This document shows positions 1,345 to 22,696 of a stretch of DNA of 64,000 nt, in pieces. The DNA is taken from the NCBI GenBank assembly GCA_030295235.1, contig AP026157.1:310001-374000 (forward strand), read 5' to 3'. A program made the translations under genes and the position numbers. The stretch's first letter is position 1; each line of letters opens with the position of its first letter. The notes under the pieces were generated by a model that searched no databases, was not told the origin of the DNA, and worked only from the letters and a program-made list of their open reading frames with translations. The DNA is from Fistulifera solaris (taxonomy: Eukaryota; Bacillariophyta; Bacillariophyceae; Naviculales; Stauroneidaceae).

Positions 1345-3338
1345 ATGATTGTCAACATGCAATACCTCAAGGTGCCCCCCCTCGCTCTCGGTTGTGCCCT
1401 TCCGCGAACAGTTGCTGATCCTCGACCGTCGACAGTACTGCAGCTAGACCTATCATCTCCTGTTGGCCGTCCCCCTGATTGCCACAACACCATCTGTCTC
1501 TCTGTTCCCTCAGATGGAGACCCCAAAATCGTTATCGGAGCTCACTCGATGTTCGATTACATCTTCCAGTGCAATTTTGGGGACGCACGTTGTTCGTTGG
1601 GTACGGTCTACCAGATTGAGGGAACAGGTGTTTTGCTGGAGGTATCCCTGCTCTTTGGTCCTTCCAGTTCGACGGGTTCTATTGCTGTGTTTGAAGGTTG
1701 CCTTAGTGGTGCCAGCGCTACCGATGGATCCGATAGCACCCACAACGAAGGAATATTTCCTGACTGTGTCAGAGACGATTCTAACCAAGGCACTCGTTGG
1801 ATAGCAAAAAGGGTCATTTCTACTCAATCGTGGTATATGCGCGATTGGGTCCTTCTTCCAAGCCTTTCATTCTTCGCGTTAACACTGCAAAATCGTATCC
1901 AGTTTGCGACACAGAGGAAAAGAAAATGATTGCTCCCGTTGATCTGGGTACTGTGAACGCGACTTCTGTCTGCGAAGACTCTTCAGCGGTTGATATGGTG
2001 TCGGGCAGATTCTCGGCAACCGTCAATCATCATGATGCCAAATTATACAGAGACCTCCACGCTTGCTTCGCAATGTATCACGGTCAGCAAGATAGATTGC
2101 AGTCATCCTACGTTTCGATTGCAGAGCCCATCAATAGTCCTGCAAGGGTCTTCAAGATAACCGGTGACGGAGAAACTTATGTTGCTTATGCAACTCATTC
2201 CTCCGCTCCTGATCCATATACTATTCTAAGTGACTTCGTCAAGATGGCTCTTTTCACTGTCAGTGAATGTGAAGCCACACCACAATGTGTTCAGGGACAT
2301 GAGTACCGTAGGACTATCTCTTTCGAAACAACTGCTGGTGAGACCTACTACTTGGCAGTCTACAATGATGACGGCGACAGTTTGGAAACACTCGACTTGC
2401 AACTCTCTTTTTTGTCTAGTAAGGCTCCTTGCGAAGATGCAACCAATCTAGGAATAGTTGGCAGTTCAGGGCGAACAATTAGCGGCACAATGGATGGAGC
2501 TAATCTGTACAAGGGCTTAGAATACGGTTCTTTTTATGAGATTATTCGTGCGCGAGTTTTTGCCTTCGTTGCAGAGAAGGACGGTCCATTTATGGTCACT
2601 GTCAAGGGGTCTGTCACAACACCCTACAACTGCAGCAAGATTTGTTGGGGTTTGGTACGGGGAGAGTGTTTGCATTACACGTTGCTCCATGTAACGGCTG
2701 TGCCGAGCTGTGATGTCAAGGCCAAATTGAGGAATCCTGGCACTCCTTATTTTGCTACGTCAGGAGTTTCGTATGACGTTGTCGTCTTCTCAAATCATTT
2801 GTTCGCCTCCGAAGACTTCCAGCTAGCTATAGACTTTTTAGAAACCGCCGAAGTCTGTGGTAGCGAGCACGTTGTGAATATGGGATCTATTCCTGATGAA
2901 GGTACTGTATTCAGCGGAACCACAGAGTTCGCTCCTTTGTTTGTACTTCCCCAGTCGTGTCAGGTCCACAATAACTACGCTTCACCAGTGACGCGTGCAG
3001 CTAAATTCAGTCTAACAGGCGACGGAAATACCTATATGCTTATTATGGGCGCGTATTCCTCTCACTTCCAGATACTCGTGTTTCAAGGGAGCTGTGAGGA
3101 TTTGGAATGCATGCCCCAACCTGAAGCGAGCCGCGTCTTGTTGGATACCAAGGTGGGCGAGACCTACACGGTTTTAGTTAGCGACGGGACAAGCAACGGG
3201 GAATTCATTTTGCACGTCAACAAAAAGGCAGCCCTGGTAAGCGTCATTGCTGACTCGATGGAGACAGTCTTGCATCTGCTGGCCTTTATATGTTTGTTTG
3301 CCTCTGTGTTCGGTGGTCTTGCCCGCTATCGTATATAA
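1345..3338 (+). CDS. Gene A: secreted PPC-like multi-module surface protein, short paralogue
   Basis: First of four tandem paralogues. A hydrophobic N-terminus (start 1345, or 1357 by likeness to genes C and D) leads into module 1 (QIEGTGVLLEV, then VFEGC). Module 2 is missing apart from a stub, and modules 3, 4 and 5 follow (VCEDS at about 1970, APCEDA at about 2430, VCGSEHVVNMG at about 2870). It ends in a hydrophobic stretch of about 20 residues and ARYRI instead of modules 6 and 7. The frame changes once, in a five-A run near 1805-1810. Paralogues show the expected frame there, and a one-base change gives 664 residues. The fold assignment to PPC-like beta-sandwiches is inference from alternating beta pattern and repeat spacing. 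Role is probably extracellular or cell-surface; function unknown. Confidence 0.65.
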
Positions 3339-4349
3339 GCTTTACGGTTTCTATGATCCAGACGCTGTCGGTGACTCGATAAGCTTGGGAAGTTGGATCG
3401 CACGGCCATTTTGGATACACATTGAAAGCGGTGATAGCAACGGCGCGCTCGGTTGACTGTCTTTTCAGTGTAATAAGGTAATACGATGAAGCTATGTGTA
3501 ACTGGTTTGAACCTAGAAAACAAGCATTTCTCTTGAAGACCATGTGACACATACTATTGGGAAGGAGTGAGAGCAACAGATGAGATCAACTAATAGAGTC
3601 GAGAAAACCTTCTGAACTACCGACTGACAATGGCTCCTCTCATGCAGGATTTAACTGTTGACGGTTCCGTTGTATACCTCTTCAATTGGTATAGCTTGCT
3701 TCTCAAACGTCCCGGAACCGTGCAAGTGACGATCTTTTGACAAGAAAAAAATGATGCTTAAATCGCGTACTCTCTCTCTATAGAGTAGATCGCTACTACA
3801 ATGAGGATAATGAGGTGGACGTCAGTACCCGTACGTCTTCGGGAGTGAATGTACTGAAGCATACGGGGGACGCGCTGTGTTTTTTTACTCCGTGTTTCGT
3901 TTTTCCATTACTTTCTATTCATTTGAATTGATGATGATGAGAGTGTGATGATTGTTCTTTTTGATTACACAAAATGAAAAAGAATGAAATAATAAGTGCT
4001 TGAAATTTTTGCGCCCAAGTACCATAATGACGCCCGACAGCCGGTAGGCATTATCGTTGAACTTCACATTCGAGGGACATCGAGCTCGCATTCGGAAGGA
4101 AACAGAAAAAATGAACCATTCATTATCATTCCATCAAGTTGTAGGCTCATCCGTGAATAATGCTACAATGGGAAGACACAACATTGGCAAATAAAGGTCA
4201 TTCTGCTTGCACAGCTTCTCATCCTTACAGAAAAAAATGGTCAAGAAACGCAACGCCCAATCATGGGCATTTTATTTTTTTACAAAGATTTGAGGAGCAG
4301 GAGTCGTCTCAGCTATTGGTTTCGCTTTTCTCAGTCCCTTTTATTCCGC
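3339..4349. other. Intergenic A-B, carries conserved upstream block
   Basis: No gene seen. The 3' part carries a block shared with the upstream regions of genes C and D (see 4010-4120). Confidence 0.5.
4010..4120 (+). promoter_or_regulatory. Conserved upstream block of gene B
   Basis: Contains GCGCCCAAGTACCATAATG at 4011 and ACGCCCG just after it, then CGCATTCGGAAG about 60 bases on. The same ordered elements recur upstream of genes C and D. The block lies about 340 bases before the likely ATG at 4350. Preservation among otherwise diverged flanks suggests a promoter element, but co-duplication alone could also explain it. Confidence 0.45.
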
Positions 4350-6464
4350 ATGCGCTCAATCCTGGTAATATTCCTGAACCTATACGGGGTCCTTTTCAAT
4401 AAGACGGCAGCCGACGGTGTCGCACTTCTCCCGCCGTCTCTCGGTGTTTCGGAAAAGGTTCCTCTTTCTCCTATTATGACAAAAGTAGGTTCTTTGTGCG
4501 AAAACAATATCAAGCTTTCTGTCCCTGTAAAGGGTAGCCCGACGATTGTTAGTGGAATCCATTCGAAGCTTTACTCCGTTTCGGATTGCTCTTCTTTGGA
4601 TCTTGGACAACCTCCGGCAACAGTCTATCAAATCGAAGGAACAGGTGCGATGCTCGAGATAACCATGTTCTCGGGTATGCTCGGCTCCTCGAGTGACCTT
4701 GCTGTTTTGGAAGATTGCTCGGAAGGGTATATTGCTGCATCCGATACGAAGGGCGGCACCGTCCCCCACTGCGTTCCAGGCCAGTATCACCAGGGTGCTC
4801 GCTGGCACGCCAAAGCGGGCCAACTATACACCATCGTTGTGTATTCCTACACAGATCTCTCTTCTAAGCATTTTATGTTTCGACTCAAAGCAGTGAAAGC
4901 AACCCCGATTTGCGGCGCCAGTATCCTTCCCATCGACTTGAGCACTCTCAACGCCACTTACAACTCCGTGCAGCGACTCGGCGGGCCCGAAGATAGCGTG
5001 ATGCCATCCGGACTTCCCTCGTGCGACTCCAAGCCACTGTCTTCTTCTGTTTTCTATAAGATTACTATAAGTCAGCCGAATGTGGCAGTATTGGTCCACG
5101 TGCAAGGTGGCGGTTCCCACGCAAGCGTCTATCGAGGTGATTGCGAGAACGGTTACTCGTGTCTTACTTCCGCCAACGTCGAGTACGGACTTCCCCCGAT
5201 TTATGATAATGGCGATGCGGAAAACGGAACTGATGGCGAAGTTTCCATTGAGGATGAAATCGCAGTTGTGGACCCTCAAGCTCGGCAGGGAAATATGCCA
5301 TTGCCTCGAATCGTGTACAACCTCCACTCGTTTCACAACGCCAAGGCAGAGACTTCTTATCTCATCGTGATCAGTTCGTGTTGTCATACGAATGTTGCCG
5401 ATTTTCGGCTGACGGTAAATTCCACTAATTACGGCAGTATTTGCGAGGATTCTGCAGCAATTGATTTGTCCTCCGGCTCCTTTTCCAATGCCGTCGACCT
5501 TTCCGGCGCAAAAGTATACAGAGATCTTTTGATGTGAACATCACCACCGTCTCCAACAAAGCACCTTGTGATGATGCGACTGACTTGGGATCAATGGGAA
5601 GTGCTGGACTAAACGTCAACGACACTTTGAACCGAGGTGGTTTCTACAGGGACTTGGACCTTTGCGGCGTAGTTGCTGGAATTTCTCGTCTTCGCGTTTT
5701 TTCGTTTATTGCAGAAGCAGATGGTCCAATGATGGCCACTGTCAAAGCAGAGTCAACGATGAAAGTGAACCCTCAATCTCCGTTACAGCATCTTGCGAGA
5801 CTAACGAGTGTGTTGCTGGCTTATCAACCCTTGATATCACATTGAAATCCCAGGCTGCGGTGTGGGACGCCAAAGTCGGGGCTCGTTATTACCTTTTGGT
5901 CAAAAGTCATGACTACACGATCACCGACGGAAACTTTCTTCTGACTGTACAAACCTTTCCGACAACGCCGCTTTGCGATCATAAAGATGTGGTTGACATA
6001 GGAACTATTCCCGACGAAGGCGTTAAATTCGACGGAAGCACAATATCTGAACTCTTGTTTTCTCTGCCAACATTATGTCAGATTTCAGACGGGCACTTGT
6101 CGTCAGCAATCCGTGGAATAGCCTTCACCTTTACAGGTGATGGAACTGCGCGCACGTTCTAAGTGTGGGCAGCGATATCGGCTTTAAGCCCCTAAGGTGA
6201 CTATATTCAAGGGGAGTTGTGATAGTCTTGAATGCCTCCCCACAGACTCACATACAGACAGCTTTTTGGTGGGGACCGAGCCGGGCGAAACGTATATAAT
6301 TTTGATTGGCGATTGCTGCACCTTGGGTATAGTCGACGGGACATTTACATTGCATGCCAAACGTGTCGTCACGGGCAACATGGCTGCAGATTTGACGGGG
6401 AAGATTGACTCTCTAGACAGTGTGAAAAAGATGTTGAATGGGTCAACTTCAACTGGTATTTTTT

Positions 6465-6881
6465 AACAATAGCTAGAAACGATTTGCACCTTTTCTGCTA
6501 TTGGTATCGCTCTCTGACGAGGGACGAGACACAGATGACAATCAAACGAACGATAAAGTAGGAGGCGACCCTACGCTTACGCGGCACCGGTAAACCTCCA
6601 GAAGGGAGCACTGCTTCAATCGGTCTACCTTGAGTTCCTCCACTACACGAGGGGGGAGAAACACAAGAGATGGTTATCGACGAGAGGCGAATAACAACAA
6701 CAACAAGACAGATCAAATTATGATTAGAAACGTTCGTTAATCTACTGCGTAAAACTGCGATTGCTCCCGAATCAAATCTGCTAAACGTGATAAATATGCA
6801 AATTGTGTCACAGCGTTGTCTTGAGGAAAAACCCAATGACCACGACCCAAATTCCAGTCGTGAGTGATCCAAACTATTGTT
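6465..6881 (-). repeat. LTR of copia element (3' LTR in element orientation)
   Basis: Near-identical to 13156-13569. It begins AACAATAGCTAG and ends with CTATTGTT. It abuts gene B module 6 coding sequence on its left. Confidence 0.9.
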
Positions 6882-7163
6882 ACTCCCCATTTTTCCGAAG
6901 GACAACACACACAATTGATTCCAATGTAAACATGTAAGTAAAGTGCCCACCGCACATCCTCCCCAACAGCTGACAACAGTAGTTGTCAAGCTTCCACCTT
7001 ATCGTCCTCTTCGCCGTCGCTAGGCTTGCCACCGACTAGAAACAACAGAGGACGAAGAATGAACTTCCACGTCTTGGCGTAAGACCAATGCTTGCTAAGA
7101 AGGTCAGCAGCATTCAATTCTCCCGGAATGTAGTGAAACTCAATCATACCTGACGCAATAGCC

Positions 7164-9745
7164 TCACGCTGCGATGATACGACAACATCGTGTGGCTAGA
7201 AGTTTAGAACCAGGAAGTGCCGAGCTATCAACAACCGACTTGTTGTCACCGAACAGATAACTCGTCTTCCGAACCGGAATCCCCAAATAACGCAACGTCA
7301 AAGCGCAGGTCCGTAATCTGCTCAACCGCAGTACGTGCCGCACTAAATTCACTCCCATAAGTAGCTGTTTCCACAGTAGCCTGTTTCTTCGAATACCATT
7401 CATACGGGCGTGTTGTTGATCATATGCAGAATTCCTGTAACCGACTTGCCTGTCAACATGTCATGATAGAGATTGGCATCCACGTATGTAGTAGTCAACA
7501 CAGGCTTTCCCAAAGACTCCGGTGCGTCATGTGGAATCATTTCCTCAGCACCAGCATAGACGGAATAATCCCAATCGTGGACAACTGCCGGCAACGTGCT
7601 GTAGTCAGGCTCCGAAACATCCACGCGAATAGCCGAATGACGGAACTTATACAGATATCCGTAGATGCGCTTGACACGATCCATGTGCCCAAAGCGTGGT
7701 TCCGAGCGAAACGATGACATCGACATGACAGCTGTAAAGATATCAATCCGACCAATCGTGACGAGCCACTGCAATGCACCAATGAGCGATTGATACGTCT
7801 TCGTCTTCTCATCATCAAGGAATTCTGAAGTGTCAAGCTCTGGATGATCATTTGGCTCTAACGGCGACTGGTAGTTCCGAGGCTTCTGACCGAAGACACG
7901 CTCATAATTGACGAACATCCGCTCCAGGTATTTTGTCGGCGAGTAGCTAAGAGTGTCCGTCGAGTCTTTGACGAAGTTCATCCCCAAATGAAAAAACACA
8001 GGCCCTGTTCCCTTCAATTTGAAACCGTACTTGTGCTTCAGTGCTTCGACAATCAGCATCGGTTGCTTCGATACGATGAGCAAATCGTCGACATAAACGG
8101 CAATGTACTCGTACAAGTCATCACAACGACGCATCCACACGTCTGGTTCCGACTTCGAAGGGAAGAAACCCATTTCACGGAGAACATCGGCAAGTCGTTC
8201 CGCCCAACGGTAATTACTCGAGCGCAAGCCATACAACGCTTTGACGATGACAAGAATGTGGTCTTTCAACTCACCGAACTCTGGACCGGCGATGATGTAC
8301 ACTTTCTCACGCGTCTTGGCTTCGAGATATGCATTACCGACATCGGTCGCATAAAGCTCTTGGTTAAGCTCTGCAACGAAGACAACGACGCGAATACCCT
8401 TGATGGTAACAACTCCGGCGTAAACACTATCTAACGGAATATCCGTCAAATGTCCGTCAGCAACAAGTCTCGCTTTGTGGCGACCGTCATGTTTCACGTC
8501 GTATACAAAGTGAACTCGAATTTTCTTGTAACCGTCGAGAGGCCGAACTTTATCCTTGTGTCCACAGTCACGGAACGTGGAGTACTCATGGAGCGAACCA
8601 GACTCCAAAGCGGTTGCGTCCATCCACTTGGTGTTTCCATTCCGTTCATCCAACAAGATGGCGTGGAGAAAGTTCCGCGGAATCTCATACCCATACTTGT
8701 ATCGTGGTGCTGTATTGTAGGAACGAAGCTTGGCTTGTTTGACGAGACGTTCAAATATTTTCTCCTTCTTCTTTGCCATCGCACGGAACCGACGCCAACC
8801 ATTGGCATGCAACAAATCATTGGCCTTGGCGTAAATTGCACATTCGACCGGTGCCTCCTTTGCAAATTGATCCAACGGCATCCAGGTCACCTCCCCATTC
8901 TCCCATGCAACCTTGACGTTGTACGGCGATCCTGCATACTCTTTGTTCTTATCAGTAAGCGGGCCTTGGTTATCCACAATCTTCCGGAATTTCCATGCAG
9001 TAGGATTCGCGATGTCACGGTTAATGTACTCCATGACCTCCCCATAGGTCAGCATCGCCTCAAATTGACCGTCGTTGATGGAACAACGATACTGGATGCG
9101 GTTGCGATTCTGCTCAAATTCGGCCGCAGCCTCAGCAATATCACCAGCGATGCCCAGGATCTTAGCTCGATACTTGAGTCCTTCGGGGTTCGGGATCGTA
9201 AAGGAACGACCAATCAGCTCGTCCGGGGTGAAAGATCGGAACATCGGCACGACTTGAACCATGCTCCCCATCCAGCTCACGGCGAGAAACCAGTTCGAGC
9301 TGACGGGCAGGAGGGGGTCCAATCTCCCCATCAATCGGGCGATGATCCGAGGTGGTGCTACAAGCGGATCGACCACGGCGGTTCGGGTCGGTCTCCGTTT
9401 CAGCCGAAGCCGGACAGCAGAACGGTGAATGATGCGTCGGCTCCCCATGGTCAGAATCTTGAACGTCATGGCGTTACCGACGTTCTTGGAGACTCCCACA
9501 AAGTAACCGACATCTTCACGAGACTGCGATGGAAACGAGTGTGCATCAACACGATAATACACTTTCTCAAAGAAGCGGAAGCGAATGAAAGGACTGATGT
9601 CGGGCGTGTTGCCATTCAAAACGCCGAAGTGGAACGTCCTTGAGCGCACGATTGTAATGCGTATGGTTAAGGATATCGGCGACATGCGACAAACATTCAA
9701 ACCATAAATCGTCCGGCGCACCCGATCTGTCCATGACAATGTCAC
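7164..9745 (-). mobile_element. Copia element part: reverse transcriptase and RNase H
   Basis: Fossil pol part. It carries the copia reverse transcriptase signatures KALYGLRSSNYRW and YVDDLLI, followed by a TYVDANLYHD stretch typical of the copia RNase H start. The upstream part holds the linker region after integrase. It belongs to the element at 6465-13569, not to a host gene. Confidence 0.85.
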
Positions 9746-11824
9746 AAATCCATTTTGACGTCTTGAATCTTCCGTTCAGCATAGTTCTGGTGCTGGTAAC
9801 TACCTTCACTCATCCAACTGCCAATAAAAAGAGTGTCGAGGATGTCCTGGACACGTTTGTTGACCACAGCTTTGGCTTGGTCGCTAAGGACGCGTGTTGG
9901 TGCACCGCGATCGCGAATGACGTCCGTCAGCACAGTAGCAAAGTGCGTTTGACTGTGAAGAGGATAGATATCGATCACACCGGAATCGACACCAACGAAG
10001 AGTTGGGCATGCTTCACACCGAGGCCAAAAGCTTTCGTGTTGGAAAAGATGGTATCCGTGGCGATCGCTTCCTTGCGACGTGCAACATTCATGGCAGGAT
10101 GCGGCGATTTGAAGAGCTTCTGCAACACTGGGGAGTTGTATTCACGCGCATACTGTGTGGTGCGAGCAAAGGTCTCCTTGATAACATCGAAACCAAGATA
10201 AGCAAGCATCGGACGGACCTTTTCGACGTCGACTGGTTTCATCCGAATGTCAAGAATCGGCGAACGTCGTGAGTCGGTGGATCTGTAGAAATTAAAGTAG
10301 TTTCATCAGATGGCGTTGATTCACCCGTTAAAGCCGGAATCCCTGGAGTCACGTTGTTGACTTGCGACGGCGGAGTGTTCTCTGGTGGCACAGAAGGTAC
10401 AATCTCGTTGTCAGCAACAGTAAGAGCTGCAAAAACGTCAACAATATCCTGAACCGGGTCGAAACGATCGAGATCTTCGAGCGGATCAAACGGAGGGACC
10501 GATTGCAACACATTAGTGACGACGCGAGCAATGGCAGTGGCGATGACGGAATCGTGGAGATGAGCGTCGATATAGCTACGGTACTCGCCGAATTCGTCGA
10601 AGAGATTCGCATCCGATGTGTCTTCCAGAGCAGGCGGAGGCGGTCCCTTCCATTCATCGTCATCCATCTTGTGATCGAGCACTGTCGGATCCCATTCCTT
10701 GTCGTCAGTGAGGAAGATGTGTGGCAGTTCATCCCATTCCTCGTCGGTGTATGGGCGAATGTCCAATCGACAGAGACCTCGCGTAACGATGAGTGGTAAA
10801 ACGTATCCGTCCTTGGTGAGGATCCGCTGCGTACCACCGACCTTTACAGATCGATCATCCACCTTTTGTCCATACTTCTCCAACTGTCCAGATGAATGGA
10901 TCGTGACACCGCGCCCGTGTAAGCGTACTTATGGAACACAGCAATCCGCTCGCGGACTTGGGTCTTGACAACTCCAGCAACCGTGGCAATCGGAACTCGG
11001 GGCATCTGGTGGTTATCTATGCCTTGGATGTCAACAAAACGATCCGGAACCGTTCGCATAAGGCGTACATCTTCACCACCTACACCACCATTCGCTCCAC
11101 GGTCAATGAGCGATAACTTGGTGTCCGAGATCACTCGATTGCTGACCGAGTAAACATGGGCCATGTTGACGCTAACTTGATCGAAGTTGACGCTTTTCTT
11201 TCCACTTGTATTCGTCTTGGGGCCTTGAATAGTTTTCTTCTCCAAAGTATTATGCAGGGACCCTGGATGCAACGAGTGCTTTTCGTTCTTGAAAGGATTC
11301 GACTTCGTTTGGTTGATTTCGACAGCTTGCGTTTTGTCGTCATCGTCATCTTCGGTGTACGACTCGTTACGAGAATGAACAAGCGCTGACAGCATCTGAC
11401 TGAGCGTGACGTCTCCCAGCGTGGCGTCACTCATGTTTGCTTGACGAGCAGTACCTGGATACTTTTCGCTACGCTTGGCAGGCGGTTGCTTCGAGGCGGA
11501 GTTGACACGATGCATGATCGTCGATTTTCCCGCATCGGAGAGCTTGTCCCAGACGATACGGTCTTCAGGCGACAATTTTGACCACTGTTCGCGAGTGAGC
11601 TTGGGGAAATAGCCTGTCTGTCCGCTAGCAAGATATGCTTCATACGTGTCCTCCCCACTCAACAATTCACCGTGTTCAAGTCTTCGATCGGGTCTCCAAA
11701 GATGTCGTGTGTAGACGTTAAGCTTTCCGCCCTTGCTCGTAGCACGGAACTGATCGTCGTGCTCTAAAGCGGCAACCATCAATGCTTCCATGTACTTCGT
11801 GACTGAGGTTGGTACCAGTACCAA
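9742..11824 (-). mobile_element. Copia element part: protease and integrase region
   Basis: Fossil pol part upstream of reverse transcriptase. It includes an integrase-like core (VGVDSGVIDIYPL, then a region ending LSDQAKAV) and a protease-like LIDRGANGGV stretch where copia elements carry their DTGA-type motif. Parts are assigned by order and local likeness only. Confidence 0.65.
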
Positions 11825-13047
11825 TCTTCATAATACCGGCACTGCTGCGAACATTCATCAGGCATGGGATACCTTTGATGAGATTCTGTGTGAGAGAGTT
11901 CTTCATCGCATTGGAAAGACGTTCTTCGTGTGGCACAAGGGAGTCGTGAACGACGAAGCTCACTTTGAAATTGAAGGAGGTAGAACTCGTAAGACATTCC
12001 TTTTCCATCCGTGAGCATTCGAACTCGCATGAGCTTGGCGAGTAAATCTTGAGCCGTTAAAGACGAGTTCGTGGAGTCGGTGTAATACTCGAGAACCTCG
12101 CGGAAAACTGCCTGTGCATCCTTGTCCTCAATGTGCTCGTTGAGAATCTGTCGACTCTTTGCGGTCTTGAGCGTGGTATCGAAAACTGCAAGCATGTACT
12201 TTTTCTGCAGTTTGAACAATTCTTCATCCTCCCTCGGTCAGCGGTACGTAGTCTGGATCTAGCACTTCCGAACAATCTTGATTATCAGCATGACGACGCT
12301 GGTCGAATCGTACCAGTCCAGCCATTGGTTTTGATGCTTCAAGACCATGAAAGCTGCTTCGTTCCGTTTTGCTTTCATGAAATTCTGCGCTTTCGTCGGA
12401 GTGTATGGGGCGTACGAGGTGTGCACTGACTTGGTCGGGAGAGGCAGGCGAAGGTATCACAAAGCCAGGATGCATCGGAAGAGACAGGAACGTCGTCTGG
12501 AACCGGGGCGGCTGTAATGTTCCTCCCACATTTCAAAAGTAACCGCATAGAAACTTGATTCCGTACGATAGTTCCGAGTGTTCAAAGATCGTACAAACTT
12601 GTGAAACTTGATGAGTGAGATGATAGCGCCATTCAATGGTTGAATTCGATTTCCCCTCTCATCCATGTACGAAAGTGCGTCGATATACTGTGGCTCGTTG
12701 TCGTACTTGAAGTGCATGCACGAATCCATCCCGTTTGCAACAAGTGCCTTGTAGATCGGCGAGTCTTTTGTAACTTTCCGTAAACATTCAACATGAGATG
12801 TTCAAAGGCGGTAAACTCTACATCGACTTCTTCCTTTTTCTCGACCTTCGTATCTTCGACTTCCTTCTCCCCTTTTTGCTCACTTTCGACTTGACTTTCG
12901 TCGTTCTTTTTCTTCACGTCTCTTTTCTTTGTCATCTTTGTCCTTTACTCGAAGTTCCGGTTCATTCTTCTCTTCTTCGGTGCTAGTCTTGTTGTCAGGA
13001 TCCGGATCAGGCGGAGGACGCTTCTTCTCAGCCTTGGGTTTAGCCAT
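11779..13047 (-). mobile_element. Copia element part: gag region
   Basis: Fossil gag part, starting near 13047 with a very Lys/Glu-rich charged segment (MAKPKAEKKRPPP) that runs into a gag-like helical region. It is placed directly inside the 5' LTR, as expected. Confidence 0.65.
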
Positions 13048-13155
13048 GTTGCGGTAACAACAAAAAGAACCGAAGGGTGCAACAAACAGTCGACAGAGAG
13101 CGATCTGATAGACAGACAAGCTCTAACGAGAGAATCGTTATGCGACTGTTAATCT

Positions 13156-13569
13156 AACAATAGCTAGAAACGATTTGCACCTTTTCTGCTATTGGTATCG
13201 CTCTCTGACGAGGGACGAGACACAGATGACAATCAAACGAACGATAAAGTAGGAGCGACCCTACGCTTACGCGGCACCGGTAAACCTCCAGAAGGGAGCA
13301 GTGCTTCAATTGGTCTACCTTGAGTTCCTCCACTACACGAGGGGGGAGAAACACAAGAGATGGTTATTGACGAGACGAATAACAACAACAACAAGACAGA
13401 TCAAATTATGATTAGAAACGTTCGTTAATCTACTGCGTAAAACTGCGATTGCTCCCGAATCAAATCTGCAAAACGTGATAAATATGCAAATTGTGTCACA
13501 GCGTTGTCTTGAGGAAAAACCCAATGACCACGACCCAAATTCCAGTCGTGAGTGATCCAAACTATTGTT
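13156..13569 (-). repeat. LTR of copia element (5' LTR in element orientation)
   Basis: Partner of 6465-6881 with about half a dozen differences. Gene B coding sequence resumes at the duplicated ATTTTTT immediately after it. Confidence 0.9.
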
Positions 13570-14434
13570 ATTTTTTATCCTAACTTGCCGATGTGCGACT
13601 TTTCGGTCGATTCTCCTGCTGCTGTCTATCAGCTGGATACTGGCGCTGGTTTTTTCTCCGCTCAAGTTTCCGGCTTTGGATTCAATGTTCATTTATCTGT
13701 TGTGAAAGCAAACGGCTTGGGAGGATTTGAATGTTACGGAACACCCAGTGATCGACAAATTTCGTGGGAGGGAGAAGAAAGACTATATCTTGTCGTTTAT
13801 GGTTGTTGTGACATGAATGCAGTTGGAGACTTTTCCCTGCGCTTAACTAAACATCCAAGCTCAAACAAGCCATGCAATGGCGTACGATCTTGGCCACGTT
13901 CCTGATGATGGGTTGAGGCACGCCGGGACATTTGCCGGTTGGCAGTTTCCTTACCCTCAAAATGTCACCCCTTGCGATTATGGAGGTCACGTCGCTTCCT
14001 CGGCTGGCCGGTCGAAGGTATTTCGAGTGATTGGGAACGGAAAAACATTGGCGGCTTTCATGTTTGTACCTCAATCGACTTTGAGTCAGGGAATTCAGGT
14101 CTCCTTAACCGTTGTGAAAGGAATTTGTCGTACTATGGAGTGCATCAAAGGTGCTTACTCGACAGTTGACCCCTTTTGGTCGGTCACCTGGCCGTCTGTA
14201 GCAGGGGAGACTTATGATATTTTGATATCCACGTGCTGCGCGGAAGTCGAAGACGAATTCATACTCATGGTGTACGAGGGATGGTAGGGAGTTGTTTGGC
14301 AGTAATGAGACAGCAGTCACGGGACTCGGAAATAAGGGTGGCGTCGATGCGGATTCTTCAAGCAGCAATTGAGAAAGGGCATGTCATTCTTGTTGAATGC
14401 CGTGGTATTGGTAGCATTGTTTTGCTGTTACTAA

Positions 14435-15536
14435 TGGAAAGTCGTTCATCAAGGTAAAGTATTGTCGCTTAGATAGGCAAAGAGCAATAATTCATGAGAT
14501 TTTGTAGTTGCTGAATCTGTGCATAGGATACTAGCTTCTTTTCCTTCGAATTGTCAGGTCAAGATAGCACATATAGATCTACGTTTTTCAATTTCCAAAT
14601 GGTGTGACGCACTCAACTACAAATCACGAAACCTAACACCAAACTAGTCCAGGACATAGAGTTGTTGACCAACCTTCAGAATCCACCCAGTAATCCAACC
14701 CCAAAAAACCTAACAAACGTCAATTTGACCACAATCGGCACCAAGTACAACCTAATAGTCAATTCGGCCGTCGGACCTGGCCACATCACCCAGTCCGAAC
14801 AAGATGACAGCCCCCTTGCTCACCACACCAGTGACATGGTAATCTATGTATAGGAAGTCAGCCTATCACAGATTGCACTACGGTTCAGTCATAGGGATAG
14901 GACGTAAGAACGATATATTCTCAGTTTTTTTATATTTATTTGTAGCCATAGCTATCTCTCTAAAGAGTTAAGTCGGCCTGTACCGGTACGCCATGAGGAA
15001 TGTTACTAATTATATACCAGTATCAGGTAAAATAGCATCATCGTTGCAATTCTTTCACCCACTGCGCAGCAGAGGGGCGACGGGCGACGGCGACGATGAG
15101 GCATTCTAAAAAAATATTATTATTTCTCCTTTGTTATTTCCTTGAATGAAAGTGGAGATGTATTATGTACTATTGTATTTACAAAGCATGAGTGACGAAA
15201 TATCTGGTTCTATACCAGAATCATACGATGGAGCTTCACGGTTTTGCGCCAAATAAGTACCAGTGACGCCCGGCGGCTGTAAATCTTACATGAAAATCTC
15301 GCATTCGGAAGCAAACAGAAAAATGAAAAGCCATTCATCCCAAGTCAATCAAGTCGTTGTTCATTCGTGATTGCGCCATTATTTTAATAAAAAGTTGCAT
15401 ATGCATACTTCCACAATCCTTGGAGCTTGGAGCGGCTCATTTTTTACGAACGATACGCCCAAACGGATCTATCACATTATTCATGAGTTGAGCTGGAGCC
15501 TCAAGCCTTTTTTCGCAGTAATTTTTGCATTCAACA
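14435..15536. other. Intergenic B-C
   Basis: No gene seen. It carries a GTACCGGTACGCCATG box at about 14982, also found 3' of gene C at about 18943, and the conserved upstream block at 15245-15375. Confidence 0.45.
15245..15375 (+). promoter_or_regulatory. Conserved upstream block of gene C
   Basis: TGCGCCAAATAAGTACC, AGTGACGCCCGGCGGC, then TCGCATTCGGAAGCAAACAG, in the same order and spacing as upstream of genes B and D. It lies about 290 bases before the ATG at 15537. It contains a GCGCCAA E2F-like core and a TGACG bZIP-like core (sequence likeness only). Confidence 0.5.
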
Positions 15537-18500
15537 ATGCGTCGTTTGCAGGCGACTTTCGTTGTACTTTGTGATGCGCTTCCCACGATGGCAGCCGACG
15601 GTCTTATTCCACCACCGCCTCCCAGTGCACCGGATTCGTTTGCTCCTCCCCTTTCGGAATTTGGTTCCTTGTGCGAAGACACCATTGTGCTTACGGTTCC
15701 TGCGGAAGACAGCACCGCGGTTGTGACTGGAGCTCATGCGAAGCTTTTTTCTTTTCTGGATTGCGCATTTCTCGACACAGGCTCCGCCCCAGCGACGGTG
15801 TACCAGATAGAAGGAACGGGTGCCATGCTAGATGTATTCTTGTTTGGAGATCAATACGGATCAAGTCAAGTTGCTGTTTTTGAAGGATGTCCCAGTCAAC
15901 CCGGCCGTAATGGCGCCGTGAACGTCAGTGGTGGGAAATACCCGAATTGTGTTGCCGGCCAGTATATCCAGGGCGCTCGCTGGCAAACACAAGCGGGTCA
16001 ACTGTACACGATCGTTGTGTATTCGTATGCGTCTCTTTCTTCAACTTCTTTCATTCTTCAAATTGAATCCGTTAAAGCTAGTCCAATTTGTGGCACGGAA
16101 AGCATTTCTCTTATAAATGTCGGGACACTGAACACTATTTCGGTGCAACTGCTGGGCGGATCGGAAGATAGCGTGACAATCACGGATCTTCCTCCGTGTG
16201 ATTATCAGACACGATCGTCTTTTGTTCTCTATGAATTTACTGTTTTGCAGTCGAATGTGATAATCTCGGCATCAGTCGAAGGCGTTGATTCCGTTGTCAC
16301 GGTCTATCAGGGCAACTGCGAAAGTAGCTACACGTGTTTACCGCATGCTGGAAGTGGTGACGCCTCCGTCAGCGATAAAAGCTCTGTAGTCAATAGGAAC
16401 AGCGAAGAAGTAACGGACGGGGAGGGTGCATCCGGGATGGAGTCGCAAGTCCGACTGGAAAGTATCGCGATGCCTCGGGCCAACTACAACGTTCACTCGT
16501 TTCACAATGAGATGGCAGGGGCTACCTACCTTGTTGCAGTCAGTTCGTGTTGTGGCAATAATGTTGAGGACTTTCGATTGACGTTGAATGTTACCGAATA
16601 CGGTAACGTATGCGAGACTCTGTTGAGATCAATTTGTCGTCAAACGAAACTTCGGCAATCGTCAATCTCTCTAAGGGGAAAGTGTACCAAGACCTCTCTT
16701 CTTGTCACGCAAACGGTTATCTCGATTCCAGTGGGCAACAGGCTTCTATGATGATCAGTAGTCCAGTGGCGTTCTACAAATTGATCGGTGACGGAAATAA
16801 TTATATCGCATACATTGCGCCTTCGGACCCAAATAAGTCCTTCGGTCAAGTACGGACATCACTTTATACTACCACTACGTGCAACAAGCCGCCAGAGTGC
16901 TTGCGAGGCGACAATCAAAACAACCAACTTTTAATCTCGACGGTGATTGGTGAGACGTACTATTTGGCATCTTACAGCGACCATACCGAAGATCAGGGTT
17001 CCTATGTTCTCAAGATGAGATCTTTATCCAGCAAAACTCCTTGTGAAGATGCAACCTATCTCGGATCCGTCGGCAATACGGGACTAACGGTCAACGGAAC
17101 CTTGTCAGAGGTTGCGTTCTACAGCAACTTCAGTATTTGCAACGTGTATGCCGAAACCACTCGTTTTCGCGTTTTCTTGTTCATTGCAGAAAAGGACGGA
17201 CCGATGGTTGCCACTGCCACAAAAGTCGATCCAAATATCAACTTCTACCCTCTTTTGACAGTTGTAACAAGTTGTGAGAGTGGCGAATGCATCGCTGGCT
17301 CGTCGAACTTTGATATCGACTTGCTGACTCCCGCTCTTTTCTGGAACGCCGAGGCGGGTGTAAAGTATTACGTTGTGGTCAGTAGTCTTGAGTTAACGTT
17401 CGACTCTGGAGAGTTTATTTTGACTGTGGAGCCCTTGACAGCGACGACGATTTGTGGCGAAAATGTAGTTGACATGGGAATCATTCCCAGGGAAGGCGCT
17501 ATGTTCAACGGGAGTACGATATCAGGTCCATTATTTGCTATCCCGGCATCGTGCCAAGACGATAAGACTATCGCTATGGTCAGCCGTTCAACAACCTTCA
17601 CTTTACGAGGCGACGGCAATGTTTACCTTTTAAGCGTGAGTGACGCTTTTGGATTTAGTCCTCAAGCTACTGTTTTTGACGGAAGCTGCGAGAATCTGAG
17701 ATGCATCCCTACTGATGCATATGTAAGCAGTTTCTTGGTGGATACCGCGTTAGATGAGACTTACACAATTGTGATCGGAGATTGCTGCGATCCTGTAGGA
17801 CTAGGAGGGACATTCAGACTTCACGCGAAAAAAAGTCAATAAGGGCAGTTTGACTTCCGACGCAATGGCTATGAATTTACCGTGGGGCACTGAAACCAAA
17901 CGAGTTACGGGATCGACTTCTTCTGGCTCATTTTATCCGGGTTTGCCTTTGTGTCACATCTCGGTCGATTCTCCCGCTACCGTCTATAAGCTGGACTTTG
18001 GCGACGGTTACTTTTCCGCTCAAGTTTCAGGTTTTAGTTTTGATGCCCAGCTTTCGCTCCTTAAAGCAAATGACTTAAGTGGTTTCGAGTGCTACGGAAC
18101 ACACGGACATCGACATGTCTTTTGGGAGGTAGGAGAGGCACAAAGTCTGTATCTTGTTGTTCACGGTTGCTGTGACATGAATGCCGTCGGTGACTTCTCC
18201 CTGCAGTTGCGCAAATTAAGCATATCAGGTGAACCATGCAATGACGTGCATGATCTTGGCAACGTCCCCAAAGACGGTTTGGTTTATGTCGGAACATCGA
18301 ATGACTGGTTTTTTGTTGCTAATGATGGTTCTGAAAGTGAGCCGCTTTGTGAATACGAAAACCAGCGCGCTTTCTCGCCTGAAAGGTCAAAGCTTTTTAC
18401 CGTCGATGGTAGTGGAAAGACGCTGGCGGCTTCTGCGTTCGTTTCTCATACGACTGCGATCAGGATCTCTCTAACCGTTGTGAAGAGCTTTTGTGGTTCG

Positions 18501-18812
18501 GTGGAATGCATCGAAGGTGCTTACTTGACGGTCGACCCCTTTGAGTCGATCACCTGGCCGTCTGTACCAGGAGAAACGTATGATATTTTCGTAACCATGT
18601 CGGTGTCGGAGACCGAAGACGAATTCATACTCATGGTATACGAGGACGGCACAGAATTGTTTGGTAGTAATAGGACAGCAGTCACGGGGCTCGGAAATAA
18701 CACAATGAACGACACCAGCCACGGCGCCGATTCTTCGAGCAGCAAATTGAGAAAGGCCATATCATTCTTGTTGAACGCCGGGGTATTGGTAGTAATGTTT
18801 TGCTGTTACTAA
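15537..18812 (+). CDS. Gene C: secreted seven-module PPC-like surface protein
   Basis: Best preserved family member, about 1091 residues. Start ATG 15537 opens a signal peptide (MRRLQATFVVLCDALPTMA) and a Pro-rich linker. Seven modules of 120-170 residues follow. Approximate module starts: 15666, 16084, 16606, 17036, 17448, 17840, 18228. Most share an opening Cys (CEDA, CGEN, CNDV), a strand pair around TVYQIEG or TVYKLD, a G-x-C-x(n)-C turn (GSCENLRC) and a closing YTIVV-like strand. Modules 2, 5 and 6 carry adjacent cysteines (SSCCG, GDCCD, HGCCDM). The Ser/Asn-rich tail ends in about 17 hydrophobic residues (FLLNAGVLVVMFCCY), compatible with a GPI signal or a tail anchor. Frame changes at a GG near 16617 and an A7 run near 17830 look like one-base run-length differences, since gene D is in frame at both. 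Many N-x-S/T sites fit an extracellular protein. Confidence 0.7.
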
Positions 18813-19413
18813 TGGGAATCCGTTCGTCAAGATAGGTTATTCTTGTAGTCGGTATAATTCTGTGCACTTAGGCTACTAGATTTTCCTTTTCCTCGCCGAC
18901 TTCAGGTGCACGTAGCCAACAATAACAGAGAAAGTCAGTTAGTACCGGTACGCCATGCGAACGGTTGCTACTTAAGGAAAATTAAGCTCACACCTCGTTT
19001 TTCGTTCTATCATGTCTCACGTAATACACTACTGGTACGTATGCTTCCTAATAAACTATTATTTCACCTCTTTCCTTTTTTATAAAATAAAAGCGGAGGC
19101 GATTATTGTTGTTTTCACAAAGCAAGAGTGCTGAATGCGCTGATCATACGATGGTGCTGGACGTTTTCGCGCCAAAAGTACCACAGTGACGCCCGCCGGC
19201 TCGTATAACCCTTATCTGAAAATCTCGCATTCGGAAGCAAATAATAAATGAATCCATTTATTTTAAAGTGAATCAAGTCGTTGATATTCATTCGTGATTG
19301 CGCTTTTACGGCAAGCAGGGCGCCTCAACTTCCACAACCTTCACACGTTCTTCGAGGGCTCATTCTTTTGAGAAAGATACGCCGAAAACGGCAATCACGA
19401 CAGTTTAGGGGAG
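18813..19413. other. Intergenic C-D
   Basis: No gene seen. It carries a GTACCGGTACGCCATG box at about 18943, shared with the 3' flank of gene B, and the conserved block at 19165-19300. Confidence 0.45.
19165..19300 (+). promoter_or_regulatory. Conserved upstream block of gene D
   Basis: TTCGCGCCAAAAGTACC, CAGTGACGCCCGCCGGC, then TCGCATTCGGAAGCAAA. Third copy of the block, about 250 bases before the ATG at 19414. Confidence 0.5.
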
Positions 19414-22400
19414 ATGCGCCGCTTCCGGGCGATATTCTCTGTGATCTGCGGGATCCTTTCCGAGACGGCAGCTGACGGTAAAGATCTAACACCAAAGCCT
19501 CTCGATCTTTCGGATGGGCTTTCTCCTCCCCCTGACGGAAAGTGGATCGTTGTGCGAAGAAGCCTTACAACTCTCGGTTCCTGCGGATGGGAGCCCCCAG
19601 GTGATTAGGGGGGCGCATGCCAAGCTGTTTTCTTTTTTCGGATTGCGCTTTTAATGACATAAAAGCCGTCTCAGCCACGGTGTATCAAATCGAAGGAAGT
19701 GGTACGATGTTGGATGTATTTTTGTTTCGAGATGAACTCGGATCGAATAAAGTTGCTGTTATGGAAGGATGCCCCAGTAAAGCTGGCAACAATTTCACCG
19801 GCGCCCCAAAAGATAGCAGCGGAGGCATGTCCTCGAATTGTGTTGTAGAGCAGTACGCTCAAGGCGCTCGCTGGCAAACAAAAGCAGGTCAACTCTACAC
19901 TATCATTATTTACTCCCCCGCTTCGATTTCTTCGACAGCTTACATTCTTCGCATCGAATCCATTCAAGCCAGTCCGGTTTGTGGCACAATTGCAAACTCT
20001 TTCATTCAATTGGATGCGCTAAACACAGGAAACTCATTGCAGTTACTGGGCGGATTGGAAGACAGCGTGAGTGGAGTCACGGACCTTCCTCCATGCGACT
20101 ATCAGACACGATCGTCGTCCGTTCTCTACCAGATTACTGTCGGTCTGCAGCCAAATGCTGTAATATCCGTCTTCGTCGAAGGTGATGACTCCGTTGTCAC
20201 GGTATATGAAGGCAACTGCGACAGTGGCTACTCGTGTTTGCCTTTGTCAGATGTCATAACTGATGACACCGCGATCGATTATAAAGGTTCTAAAATGATT
20301 TCGGAAAACAAAGATGGAAAAAGGGAGGGTACTGGCGCCCTCGCATTAGAGCCTCAGGTCAGGCGAGGAGGTATTGCGATCCCTCGGGTCACCTACAGCG
20401 GTCAGTCTTTCCACCATGAAAAGGCAGGGACAACATATCTTATTGAAGTAAGCTCCTGCTGTGGGGCTAGTATTGGCGACTTTCGTTTGACCTTGAATGC
20501 CACCAGTTATGGGAATGTTTGCGAGGACTCTGTAGAAATCGATTTGTTGTCAGGCAAATCATCAGTAACCGTCAACCTGTCCGAGGCAAAAGTATACAGG
20601 AATTTAGATTCATGCCATGCAAGCGGCGATTACGATGTCGATGGGCATCGGACTTCAAACGTTGGTTCGACAGCGTTCATTAGTAGTCCAGCGGTGATCT
20701 TCAAAATTACCGGCGACGGAAACAGTTATATAGCCTATATTGCTCCTTTGCACCCAAATTCGTCCATCGAGCAAATCAGGACGACTCTCCTAATGTCAAG
20801 TTATTGTGACAGAACGCTCCAATGTTTGCAGGGCGATAATTTCAGTAATTTGCTTTTGATCGAAACGCGGGTCAATGAGACGTACTACTTGGCAGTCTAC
20901 AGCGAGCAAACTGAAGATAAGGAATCTTACGATATGATTATTAGTCCCCTATCCAGGAATACGCCATGTCAAGATGCCATCAATCTAGAATCCGTCGGTG
21001 ATGGGATAACGGTTAATGGAACTTTGGCAGGAGCTGCTCTGTACAACAAATTGAGCATGTGTAACGTTTATGGCCAATTTTCTCGATTTCGCGTCTACTC
21101 ATTCGTTGCAGACAAAGACGGTCCAATGGTGGCCACCGCCAAGGTCGACCCAAATCTGAATTTCTACCCTTTTCTGACGGTTGTTACAAGCTGCGTGAAC
21201 GGCGAGTGTATCGCTGGACTTTCACATGTGGAGATCGAGGTGTCTCAACCGGCTGTTGTTTGGTATGCTGAGTCCGGTTCCACGTATTACGTTGCCGTCA
21301 GGAGGCTTGATTACGTAACTTACAACGGAAATTTCCAGTTGACAGTGGAGCCCTTGACAACGACGGCAATTTGCGATTACGAAAATGTGGTTGACATGGG
21401 TACTATTCCGGATGAAGGCGCTACATTTGACGGAAGCACAATATCTGGTCCCCTGTTTTCTGTCCCAGATTCGTGCCAAAAGGAACTAGCTGACACTTTT
21501 CCAACCAGTCGTGCCGCAACCTTCACCTTAAAAGGCGACGGCAATGCTTACATGCTAAGCGTCAGCGACGCTTCCGGCATTAGCCCTCAGGTCATTGTCT
21601 TTCAGGGAAGTTGTGATAATCTTAGTTGCATCCCAACAGACTTAAATGCAGACAGTTTTTGGTGGGAACAAAATTGGGCGAGACGTACACGATTGTTATC
21701 GGAGATTGCTGCACATCCGTACACATAGGAGGGACATTCAAACTTCATGCAAAGAAGATTATTTCGGGCAATTTTACTGCCGACGCGAAGGCATTGAGTG
21801 TGCCCGTAGGTACTGAGACCCAAAGAGTGTTAGACTCAACTTCATTGGGCCGCCTTTATCCCGGCTTGCCGTTATGTCACTTTTCGGTCGATTCTCCCGC
21901 AACTGTCTATAAGATAGAATCCAGCGTAGGTTTGTTCTCTGCTCAAGTTACCGGATTTGGTTTTGATGCTCAGCTTTCTCTTTTCAAAGAAGATGCCACG
22001 GGGGTTTTAGATTGCTACGGAACACATGACAATCGAGAAATCTCGTGGGAAGTAAAGAAGGCGCAAGATCTTTACCTTGTGGTTTACGGTTGTTGTGGCA
22101 TGAGTGTAGCTGGCGACTTTTCGCTGCAGTTGAGCAGGATGAAAATAAGAGGTGAACCGTGCAATGATGTGCATGATCTTGGCACCGTATCCGAGGATGG
22201 TTTGAATTATGTCGGGACATTAAGTGAATTGTCAATCGTGGCTACTGATGCTTTTGAAAGTGAATTGATTTGTGAATACGCAAGACAACATACTTTTCCT
22301 CTGGTGAGGTCCAAGATTTTCAAGGTCAATGGAAACGGGAAAATACTGGCGGCTTCCGCGCTCGTTTCTCAAACGACTTCAATGCAGATCTCCCACACCG

Positions 22401-22696
22401 TTGTCAAGAGCTTCTGCGGCTCGGCCGAATGCATTGAGGGAGCTTACTTCAGCGCAAGCCCCTTTGGATTGATCATCTGGCCGTCTGTAGCAGGAGAGAC
22501 ATACGATATTGTCGTATCCACGTCGCTGTCGGAAACCGATGACGAATTTATACTCATGGTGTACGAAGAAGGCTCGGAATTGTTTCAGAGCAACTCCACC
22601 AAAGAAATCGACCACGACGACTTAAACTCTTCTAGTAACAAGCGGATGAAGGGCATGTGGATGGCTTTAGTGGGGGCCATGTGTTGGTTTTTGTGA
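19414..22696 (+). CDS. Gene D: secreted seven-module PPC-like surface protein
   Basis: Paralogue of gene C with the same seven modules, about 1093 residues. Start 19414 (MRRFRAIFSVICGIL, signal peptide, then AADG). The long uninterrupted middle (19617-21728) covers modules 1 to 5, and 21626-22696 covers modules 5 to 7. It ends in GMWMALVGAMCWFL, a hydrophobic tail like that of gene C. Frame changes occur in a C run near 19532, a T run near 19632 and a T run near 21655. One-base run-length differences at all three give a length divisible by three and agree with gene C. Gene D therefore looks functional in the organism, with the breaks more likely to be assembly errors. Confidence 0.7.

What the first reader, a model, noticed from the sequence alone, without database searches (positions are those of the whole stretch)
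1345..22696. Tandem array of four large surface proteins built from a divergent PPC-like, Cys-containing module
Seen: four co-directional paralogues with signal peptide, up to seven modules of 120-170 residues and hydrophobic tail. Modules share an opening Cys (CEDA/CGEN/CNDV), a G-x-C-x(n)-C turn and a closing YTIVV-like strand. Inference: PPC-like beta-sandwich repeats on the cell surface, perhaps in adhesion or extracellular polymer, and a lineage-specific expansion. I know of no described family with this architecture.
Basis: partly seen in the sequence, partly recalled or inferred. Interest (0 to 1): 0.75.

Follow-up and report, generated by a model that had tools for sequence, protein, structure and literature searches.

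The report
Diatom surface-protein array of sandwich modules
In a diatom that carries two merged genomes, a cluster of related genes encodes large, probably surface-anchored proteins made of seven different disulfide-rich beta-sandwich modules, a family I found no description of; what they bind is not known.

Summary
The repeat family is real. The genome matches the allodiploid diatom Fistulifera solaris: two published homoeologue-specific target sites hit paired contigs exactly. On this contig the array has five genes: A, just upstream of the window, then B, C, D and E. The homoeologous contig keeps A, B, C and E but lacks D; a lone seven-module relative, F, lies on another contig pair. Each module position (M1-M7) is one clade across paralogues, so whole seven-module genes were duplicated, not single modules shuffled. 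AlphaFold2 gives one module as a confident beta-sandwich (pLDDT 86.9) whose fold neighbours include PliG, PPC/collagen-binding, enterotoxin C-terminal, CUB and GOLD domains. Sequence evidence for true PPC membership is weak. Signal peptides and tail-less hydrophobic C-termini suggest GPI anchoring (not tested). B has lost M2, M6 and M7; C has lost part of M3 and carries a 7.1-kb Copia element. Frame breaks occur in every copy but also in some HSP70 copies and EMC3; constraint on both sides of breaks favours assembly error in A, E and F, though only 6 of 19 lie in homopolymers. Best guess: membrane-anchored multidomain adhesins or receptors. Ligand and expression are unknown; other diatoms could not be surveyed.

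The parts
1345..3338 (+). Gene B: start peptide at 1345, M1 about 1480-1961 (frame break near 1808), M3 1962-2420, M4 2421-2846, M5 2847-3227, hydrophobic stretch and short charged end to 3338. M2 is deleted here (present in the homoeologue); M6 and M7 are absent in both homoeologues.
4350..14434 (+). Gene C: start peptide at 4350, M1 4485-4901, M2 4902-5435, M3 partly deleted, M4 about 5558-5964, M5 about 5971-6367, M6 split by a retrotransposon, M7 13865-14284, linker and hydrophobic tail in two other frames to about 14434. Several frame breaks.
6464..13570 (-). Copia-type LTR retrotransposon inside gene C, coding on the minus strand. LTRs 6464-6882 and 13155-13570 (412 of 419 alignment columns identical), ends TAACAATA...TATTGTTA, runs of T on both flanks (possible target-site repeat). 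Reverse transcriptase RVT_2. Not in the homoeologous copy of C.
15537..18812 (+). Gene D: start peptide at 15537, M1 15660-16079, M2 16080-16604, M3 16607-17032, M4 17033-17443, M5 17441-17836, M6 17841-18230, M7 18231-18650, linker and hydrophobic tail to 18812. Two frame breaks. No counterpart on C43.
19414..22696 (+). Gene E: start peptide at 19414, M1 about 19544-19970 (two frame breaks near 19546 and 19640), M2 19971-20513, M3 20511-20957, M4 20958-21362, M5 to about 21763 (frame break near 21655, shared with the homoeologue), M6 21764-22153, M7 22154-22573, linker and hydrophobic tail to 22696.
17441..17836 (+). M5 of gene D: the module whose structure was predicted (132 residues, beta-sandwich, pLDDT 86.9)

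Best explanation
A tandem family of large secreted proteins of Fistulifera solaris, each an N-terminal signal peptide, seven disulfide-rich beta-sandwich modules of PPC/CUB-like fold in fixed order, and a C-terminal hydrophobic segment that I take to be a GPI-anchor signal. Proposed mechanism: the modules form a stalk on the cell surface; the most conserved module, the membrane-distal M1, makes the main contact with an extracellular ligand (a polysaccharide of the diatom's own coat, or a partner cell or substrate); M2-M4, more variable, together with low-confidence (probably disordered) inserts in M1 to M3, act as a flexible spacer; M7 is held constant next to the anchor. Shown: repeat structure, predicted fold of one module, fixed module order, purifying selection between homoeologues in A, E and F, gene and module loss. 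Inferred: disulfides, surface location, GPI, ligand binding.
For: Modules are mutually homologous and position-specific. Confident beta-sandwich for one module; PPC, collagen-binding and CUB domains among its fold neighbours. The 835-residue model of F shows a string of beta-rich modules with low-confidence inserts at 129-181, 319-366 and 442-468. A frame-joined F of 1164 residues has 36 Cys and 13 N-glycosylation sequons. Of 8 C-termini inspected, 6 (F, A, D, two E, one C) end inside a hydrophobic stretch with no tail; the seventh, C of the window, does so too but in another frame. dN/dS between homoeologues: F 0.165 and 0.139, A 0.24 and 0.25, E 0.32 and 0.32. M1 averages 62% and M7 60% identity between paralogues A, D, E, F, against 47-50% for M2-M4 and 56% for M6; M5 has one pair only, 60%.
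Against: No expression, localisation or binding data. No GPI predictor was available, and the E tail on C42 is only mildly hydrophobic (mean 0.74 over the last 18 residues). All copies carry frame breaks in this assembly. B and C look less constrained (dN/dS 0.40-0.44 and 0.28-0.53). Profile similarity to PPC is weak; under the module profile 12 of 14 bacterial PPC ORFs rank 134-572 (11) or unranked (1) among 1627. A beta-sandwich fold alone does not imply adhesion. Two control genes gave dN/dS of 0.08 and 0.35, so 0.32 for E is no stronger than an ordinary gene.
Confidence: 0.45

Rival explanations
1. Cell-wall or girdle-band structural proteins: cross-linked extracellular building blocks of the frustule coat and not receptors. 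Repeated Cys-rich sandwiches would give stiffness.
For: Large, Cys-rich, repeated, apparently secreted; Asn-rich low-confidence insert in M1 of F.
Against: The hydrophobic C-termini fit a membrane or GPI route better than a soluble wall protein. Each module position is separately conserved, more than a repetitive scaffold needs.
Confidence: 0.17
2. Recognition or mating-type surface receptors, fast evolving and dosage variable between the two parental subgenomes.
For: Gene D missing on one subgenome, module loss in B and C, weaker constraint in B and C.
Against: A, E and F are under ordinary purifying selection; no dN/dS over 1 in the comparisons that were in frame. No sexual-stage data.
Confidence: 0.12
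3. Sorting receptors for secreted hydrolases, working like the Entamoeba CPBF proteins (signal peptide, large lumenal part with weak PPC similarity, one transmembrane segment).
For: CPBF1 belongs to a eukaryotic family of 11 proteins and has a reported low similarity to PF04151 and similar ends (PMC3465781, passages).
Against: CPBF1 has a 19-residue cytosolic domain with a Yxx-phi motif, and most members carry the motif; seven of eight C-termini here end within the hydrophobic stretch, one of them read in another frame. No sequence comparison with CPBF was run.
Confidence: 0.08
4. The array is mostly decaying: pseudogenes after the merger, with F the only working member or not even that.
For: Frame breaks in every copy; 11 indels not divisible by 3 between the two A copies, an end artefact left aside; only 6 of 19 such indels in five gene pairs lie in runs of 4 or more equal bases, so plain homopolymer error does not explain most of them; some HSP70 copies are fully open (C10, C19, C20); Copia in C, deletions in B and C.
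Against: Other HSP70 copies and the EMC3 gene show the same kind of breaks, one of them shared by both homoeologues. Constraint continues past the shared break in E (0.32, dS 0.46) and F (0.14, dS 0.22).
Confidence: 0.18

Closest known systems
PPC domain (PF04151, bacterial pre-peptidase C-terminal; includes collagen-binding domains of ColG, the latter by recall)
   Same: Beta-sandwich fold neighbour (5sv5, 1nqj); top PDB sequence hit of the module profile is chain 2luw at E 0.0088, which is also the top hit of a PPC profile, E 7.2e-28.
   Different: Of 47 modules one matches Pfam PPC, E 0.071; hhalign 3.4%; extra Cys; 127-184 residues; no peptidase domain found.
CUB domain
   Same: Beta-sandwich, in the fold list (3pof, 1spp, 6f1d); CUB-bearing neuropilin tops the whole-protein fold search, with very low TM-scores.
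   Different: CUB is not among the 17 families listed for the 47 modules; target TM 0.40-0.47.
PliG (periplasmic inhibitor of g-type lysozyme)
   Same: Best single Foldseek hit, 4dzg, E 2.3e-5, target TM 0.65.
   Different: Single small periplasmic domain; 10% identity; no repeat, no anchor. Inhibitor motif not examined.
Entamoeba CPBF receptors
   Same: Signal peptide, large lumenal part with weak PPC similarity, C-terminal hydrophobic segment, multigene family (PMC3465781, passages).
   Different: Most CPBF have a Yxx-phi motif at the C-terminus; here seven of eight C-termini have no tail.
Single-PPC secreted proteins of the same genome (C23, C24, C53) and window 62151-62900
   Same: PPC matches (two over Pfam's cut-off, two under it); four of their ORFs rank 2, 3, 5 and 8 of 1627 under the module profile, three of them near-copies, and the window one ranks 13.
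   Different: One domain per ORF, no array; no hydrophobic C-terminus in the ORFs printed.

Membership tests
PPC (PF04151) | Significant match to the Pfam model | tested here: not met
   Of 47 modules one matches PPC, at E 0.071; none of the 6 long ORFs scanned matches it
PPC (PF04151) | PPC/collagen-binding beta-sandwich fold | tested here: met
   5sv5 E 8.6e-5 TMt 0.61, 1nqj_B E 4.2e-4 TMt 0.58; the fold list is mixed, PliG first
PPC (PF04151) | Profile-profile homology | tested here: inconclusive
   hhalign probability 2.0% and 3.4%, score 18.5; 200 column shuffles mean 9.4, max 15.3; reversed 11.6, PKD control 9.8; mixed ranks
PPC (PF04151) | Usual context (recalled): C-terminal to a secreted peptidase | tested here: not met
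   No peptidase domain in the 6 long ORFs scanned
CUB | Pfam CUB match | tested here: not met
   Not among the 17 families listed for 47 modules
CUB | CUB fold | tested here: inconclusive
   3pof_B E 2.0e-4, TMt 0.47
Entamoeba CPBF | Transmembrane segment followed by cytosolic tail with Yxx-phi (most members) | tested here: not met
   Six of eight C-termini end in the hydrophobic stretch, a seventh in another frame
GPI-anchored surface protein | Signal peptide and tail-less C-terminal hydrophobic segment | tested here: met
   Start peptides and tails read by eye and hydropathy, B excepted; no predictor run
GPI-anchored surface protein | Cleavage and lipid attachment at an omega site | not testable with these tools
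   needs a predictor or phospholipase C assay
Copia LTR retrotransposon (insert in gene C) | RVT_2 reverse transcriptase, paired LTRs | tested here: met
   RVT_2 E 8.9e-28; LTRs 412 of 419 columns identical

The most novel reading that the evidence does not exclude
A new, Pfam-less domain family of diatoms: surface-anchored seven-module proteins in which every module position has its own conserved identity, kept as a tandem locus that differs between the two subgenomes of an allodiploid, serving as a recognition or adhesion system not yet described.
Probability: 0.3. Interest if true: 0.55.

Novelty: new variant of a known kind. Interest (0 to 1): 0.42.

Why it matters
Raphid diatoms glide on and stick to surfaces, and few of the proteins on their surface are known (recalled). 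A family with a predictable fold, a fixed domain order and natural gene and module losses between two subgenomes of an editable species (genome editing reported in PMC13276009; title and passages seen) could be tested directly. It also gives a case of a PPC/CUB-like sandwich used as a repeated surface module in an alga.

Tried and rejected
Relatives elsewhere: none by tblastn in plasmids or phages, none in genome contigs or viral contigs with one query protein, and none in 398 genomes of one bacterial phylum or 4 single genomes with the module profile. These reach close relatives only or had no positive control, so they do not show absence.

Rejected: introns as the cause of the frame breaks in E and F (the frames abut with no residues missing against paralogues). 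Programmed frameshifting was considered, since E and F each share a break between homoeologues; the sites differ in sequence and HSP70 on C1 and C2 shows the same, so assembly error is likelier. It is inferred, not proven: of 19 non-artefact indels in the five gene pairs only 6 lie in runs of 4 or more equal bases. Positive selection: one search gave ratios above 1 for two segments (F 3' end, A 3' end), but I had given these out of frame; one search repeats them in frame (0.139 and 0.252). Two C segments were out of frame too (one gave no pairs) and were repeated. One further row (D against E, 5' part) gave no pairs and was repeated with a lower identity limit; one rests on 34 codons and is not used.

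Isolated Pfam hits set aside as chance: one module of 47 matches Crb2_Tudor at E 0.00029 and one TRAM at 0.0081; NCBIfam's best is 0.011, one module.

Rows dropped: 48 modules were listed and 47 used in A1; L016:3895-4293 was left out because its last residues are out of frame. Alignment A2 held three rows that looked misplaced and was replaced by A3. Two of 14 PPC loci were left out of A4 (L121 truncated, L116 weak).

An earlier count said that breaks lie at homopolymers in every copy; one search does not bear that out.
Full report
What was given. The finding is a run of four large paralogous proteins at 1345-22696, built of Cys-containing modules and read as PPC-like surface proteins.

Source. 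The window is contig C42:310001-374000 of a 51.7-Mb genome in 61 contigs. Contigs come in pairs that carry the same genes (for example C1/C2, C9/C10, C38/C39, C42/C43). A paper on the diatom Fistulifera solaris prints 23-base target sites for the two homoeologous apt genes (PMC13276009, passages). Both forms of one of these sites, which differ by one base, occur once each, one on C38 and one on C39, and the reversed control pattern gives none. I therefore take the genome to be F. solaris or something very near it. The paper's introduction says that genomic analysis has suggested an allodiploid genome.

The array. A search of the genome with gene E's ORF (most of M1 to M5) finds 29 matches, all on C42, C43, C38 and C39; a search with the second half of M6 and M7 of F lists 19, on the same contigs. 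On C42 five genes lie head to tail: A (upstream of the window), B, C, D, E, followed by an EMC3 gene (Pfam EMC3_TMCO1). On C43 the order is A, B, C, E, EMC3; only about 0.7 kb lies between C and E, so D is missing. D and E differ at synonymous sites by 0.81-0.88, about twice the 0.41-0.46 between the homoeologues of A (5' part) and E; other homoeologue values are 0.31 for the A 3' part, 0.22-0.35 for F, 0.16-0.19 for B and 0.37-0.70 for C. D is therefore probably older than the split and was lost on C43. C38 and C39 carry one full relative, F, with decayed pieces of another copy beside it. An M1-like stretch in the opposite direction lies at C43 about 213.7 kb.

The modules. I collected 48 modules and aligned 47. 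Mean column identity is 20%; one Cys is invariant and a second is at 90% or more. Profiles of the seven positions match each other by hhalign, best for M5-M7 (97%), M4-M7 (97%), M3-M5 (95%) and M4-M5 (95%); several pairs do not match directly (M6-M7 0.1%, M5-M6 1%, M2-M3 2%, M1-M5 3%, M4-M6 12%), but M6 joins through M2 (82%). In a maximum-likelihood tree of the 47 rows each position is one clade (support 99-100 / 98-100), 6 changes being the least possible, against a shuffled mean of 31.6. The tree program warns of long branches joining some positions, so the order among positions is not resolved. The seven-module gene therefore existed before the duplications, and I see no exchange of modules between positions. 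Among paralogues A, D, E and F, M1 (62%) and M7 (60%) are more alike than M2-M4 (47-50%); M6 is at 56% and M5 has only one pair, 60%.

Fold. AlphaFold2 with A1 models M5 of gene D as a beta-sandwich, pLDDT 86.9, pTM 0.82. Foldseek against the PDB gives 46 matches at E 0.001 or less: PliG first (4dzg, E 2.3e-5, target TM 0.65), many entries of the C-terminal domain of Clostridium perfringens enterotoxin, the PPC domain 5sv5 (rank 5, E 8.6e-5, target TM 0.61), the ColG collagen-binding domain, CUB domains and p24 GOLD domains. These are fold resemblances at 6-16% identity and carry no functional claim. The viral library gives 5 matches at E 0.001 or less, without a clear lead. The 835-residue model of F is poorer (pLDDT 66.4) but shows a string of beta-rich modules with low-confidence inserts; its fold search returns other multi-sandwich proteins with low TM-scores and says little more.

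Is it PPC by sequence? Of 47 modules, one matches Pfam PPC at E 0.071; isolated single-module hits to unrelated families (Crb2_Tudor E 0.00029, TRAM 0.0081) I take as chance. NCBIfam gives nothing better than 0.011; a PPC-like family, DVUA0089, has one module at 0.025 (that this family is PPC-like is recalled). The module profile's best PDB sequence is 2luw, named Metalloprotease, E 0.0088; titin modules follow at 0.05. A profile of 12 bacterial PPC domains has the same chain as its top hit, E 7.2e-28. Direct hhalign of the two profiles gives 2.0% or 3.4% with trimmed columns. The score, 18.5, exceeds 200 of 200 column shuffles (mean 9.4, max 15.3), the reversed profile (11.6) and a PKD control (9.8); shuffles do not keep strand periodicity, so this control is lenient. 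In 1627 ORFs from fetched sequence the module profile ranks a PPC ORF first, and 6 of the top 8 lie at PPC loci, three of them near-copies of one diatom protein; but PKD-locus ORFs hold ranks 4, 7 and 9-12, and 12 of 14 bacterial PPC ORFs rank 134-572 or are unranked. I read this as a real but remote PPC relationship at fold level, not membership.

Ends. Start peptides of A to F are hydrophobic and precede M1. Six of eight C-termini inspected end in a hydrophobic stretch, mostly after a Ser/Asn-rich linker, with nothing after it; C of the window has the same kind of end but in other frames than M7; B has a short charged end. This suits a GPI signal. No predictor was at hand.

Frame breaks. Every copy is broken at least once. 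Of indels not divisible by three between homoeologues, one search lists 3 in E, 1 in F, 12 in A, 5 in B and 1 in the EMC3 gene; one each in E, A and B is an artefact of the ends chosen, which leaves 19, of which 6 lie in runs of 4 or more equal bases. Several HSP70 copies are broken too, and C1 and C2 share one break, while those on C10, C19 and C20 are open. In F, E and A, dN/dS stays at 0.14-0.32 on both sides of breaks, including the breaks in E and F that both homoeologues share. A pseudogene broken before the split would not be expected to keep that constraint. Assembly error is the simplest reading for A, E and F, though not proven. B (0.40-0.44) and C (0.28-0.53) are less constrained and have lost modules, so they may be decaying.

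The insert in C. A Copia-type element lies at 6464-13570 with LTRs identical in 412 of 419 alignment columns, RVT_2, and no counterpart in C on C43. It is probably younger than the homoeologue split.

Literature. Searches for diatom with PPC domain, with PPC identifiers, with CUB domain, for diatom surface and adhesion proteins and for Fistulifera surface or wall proteins list no paper that I recognise as describing such a family; I saw listings, not whole texts, and in the large result sets only the top 10 to 15. Most subscription papers are not held. The Seminavis genome paper names raphid-conserved adhesion genes, such as fasciclin proteins, in the passages I read; this architecture was not named in them. 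The Entamoeba CPBF family (PMC3465781, passages) is the nearest eukaryotic precedent I met for weak PPC similarity in a large secretory-route protein family. PMC6168687 (start of abstract) describes a C-terminal segment with a PPC domain that, by its title, binds collagen.

Verdict. The family seems undescribed but is built from a known fold. I rate it a new variant of a known kind. Function is inferred: surface-anchored adhesin or receptor, 0.45.

Noticed in passing
window 62151-62900 (+): An ORF with a hydrophobic start peptide and a weak PPC match (PF04151, E 8e-4, 20.7 bits, below the 25.9 cut-off), in the same window as the array.
   Followed up: partly
L024, L025, L026 (C24, C23, C53 near 20-21 kb): Small single-PPC ORFs; the C24 and C23 loci pass Pfam's cut-off, C53 does not. 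One ORF of each locus is nearly the same sequence, and L025 holds a second, different one.
   Followed up: partly
L140 and L141 (HSP70 on C1 and C2): Both homoeologues shift frame at the same place in a conserved HSP70 gene, with no long homopolymer there. Systematic assembly error is likely; unexplained otherwise.
   Followed up: partly
window about 23700: The EMC3 gene has a one-base frame break on C42 relative to C43, where the frame is open.
   Followed up: partly
L030: A contig labelled as an Acetobacteraceae MAG encodes an HSP70 69% identical to the diatom one, above the 47-51% of the other 79 loci listed: probably a eukaryotic contig in that bin.
   Followed up: no
L014:521-1238 (gene C on C43): A short internal tandem duplication at the end of M1 and start of M2.
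   Followed up: no
gene B, window 1345-3338 and L013:4796-7280: Synonymous divergence between the B homoeologues (0.16-0.19) is less than half that of A (5' part) and E (0.41-0.46), which hints at gene conversion.
   Followed up: no
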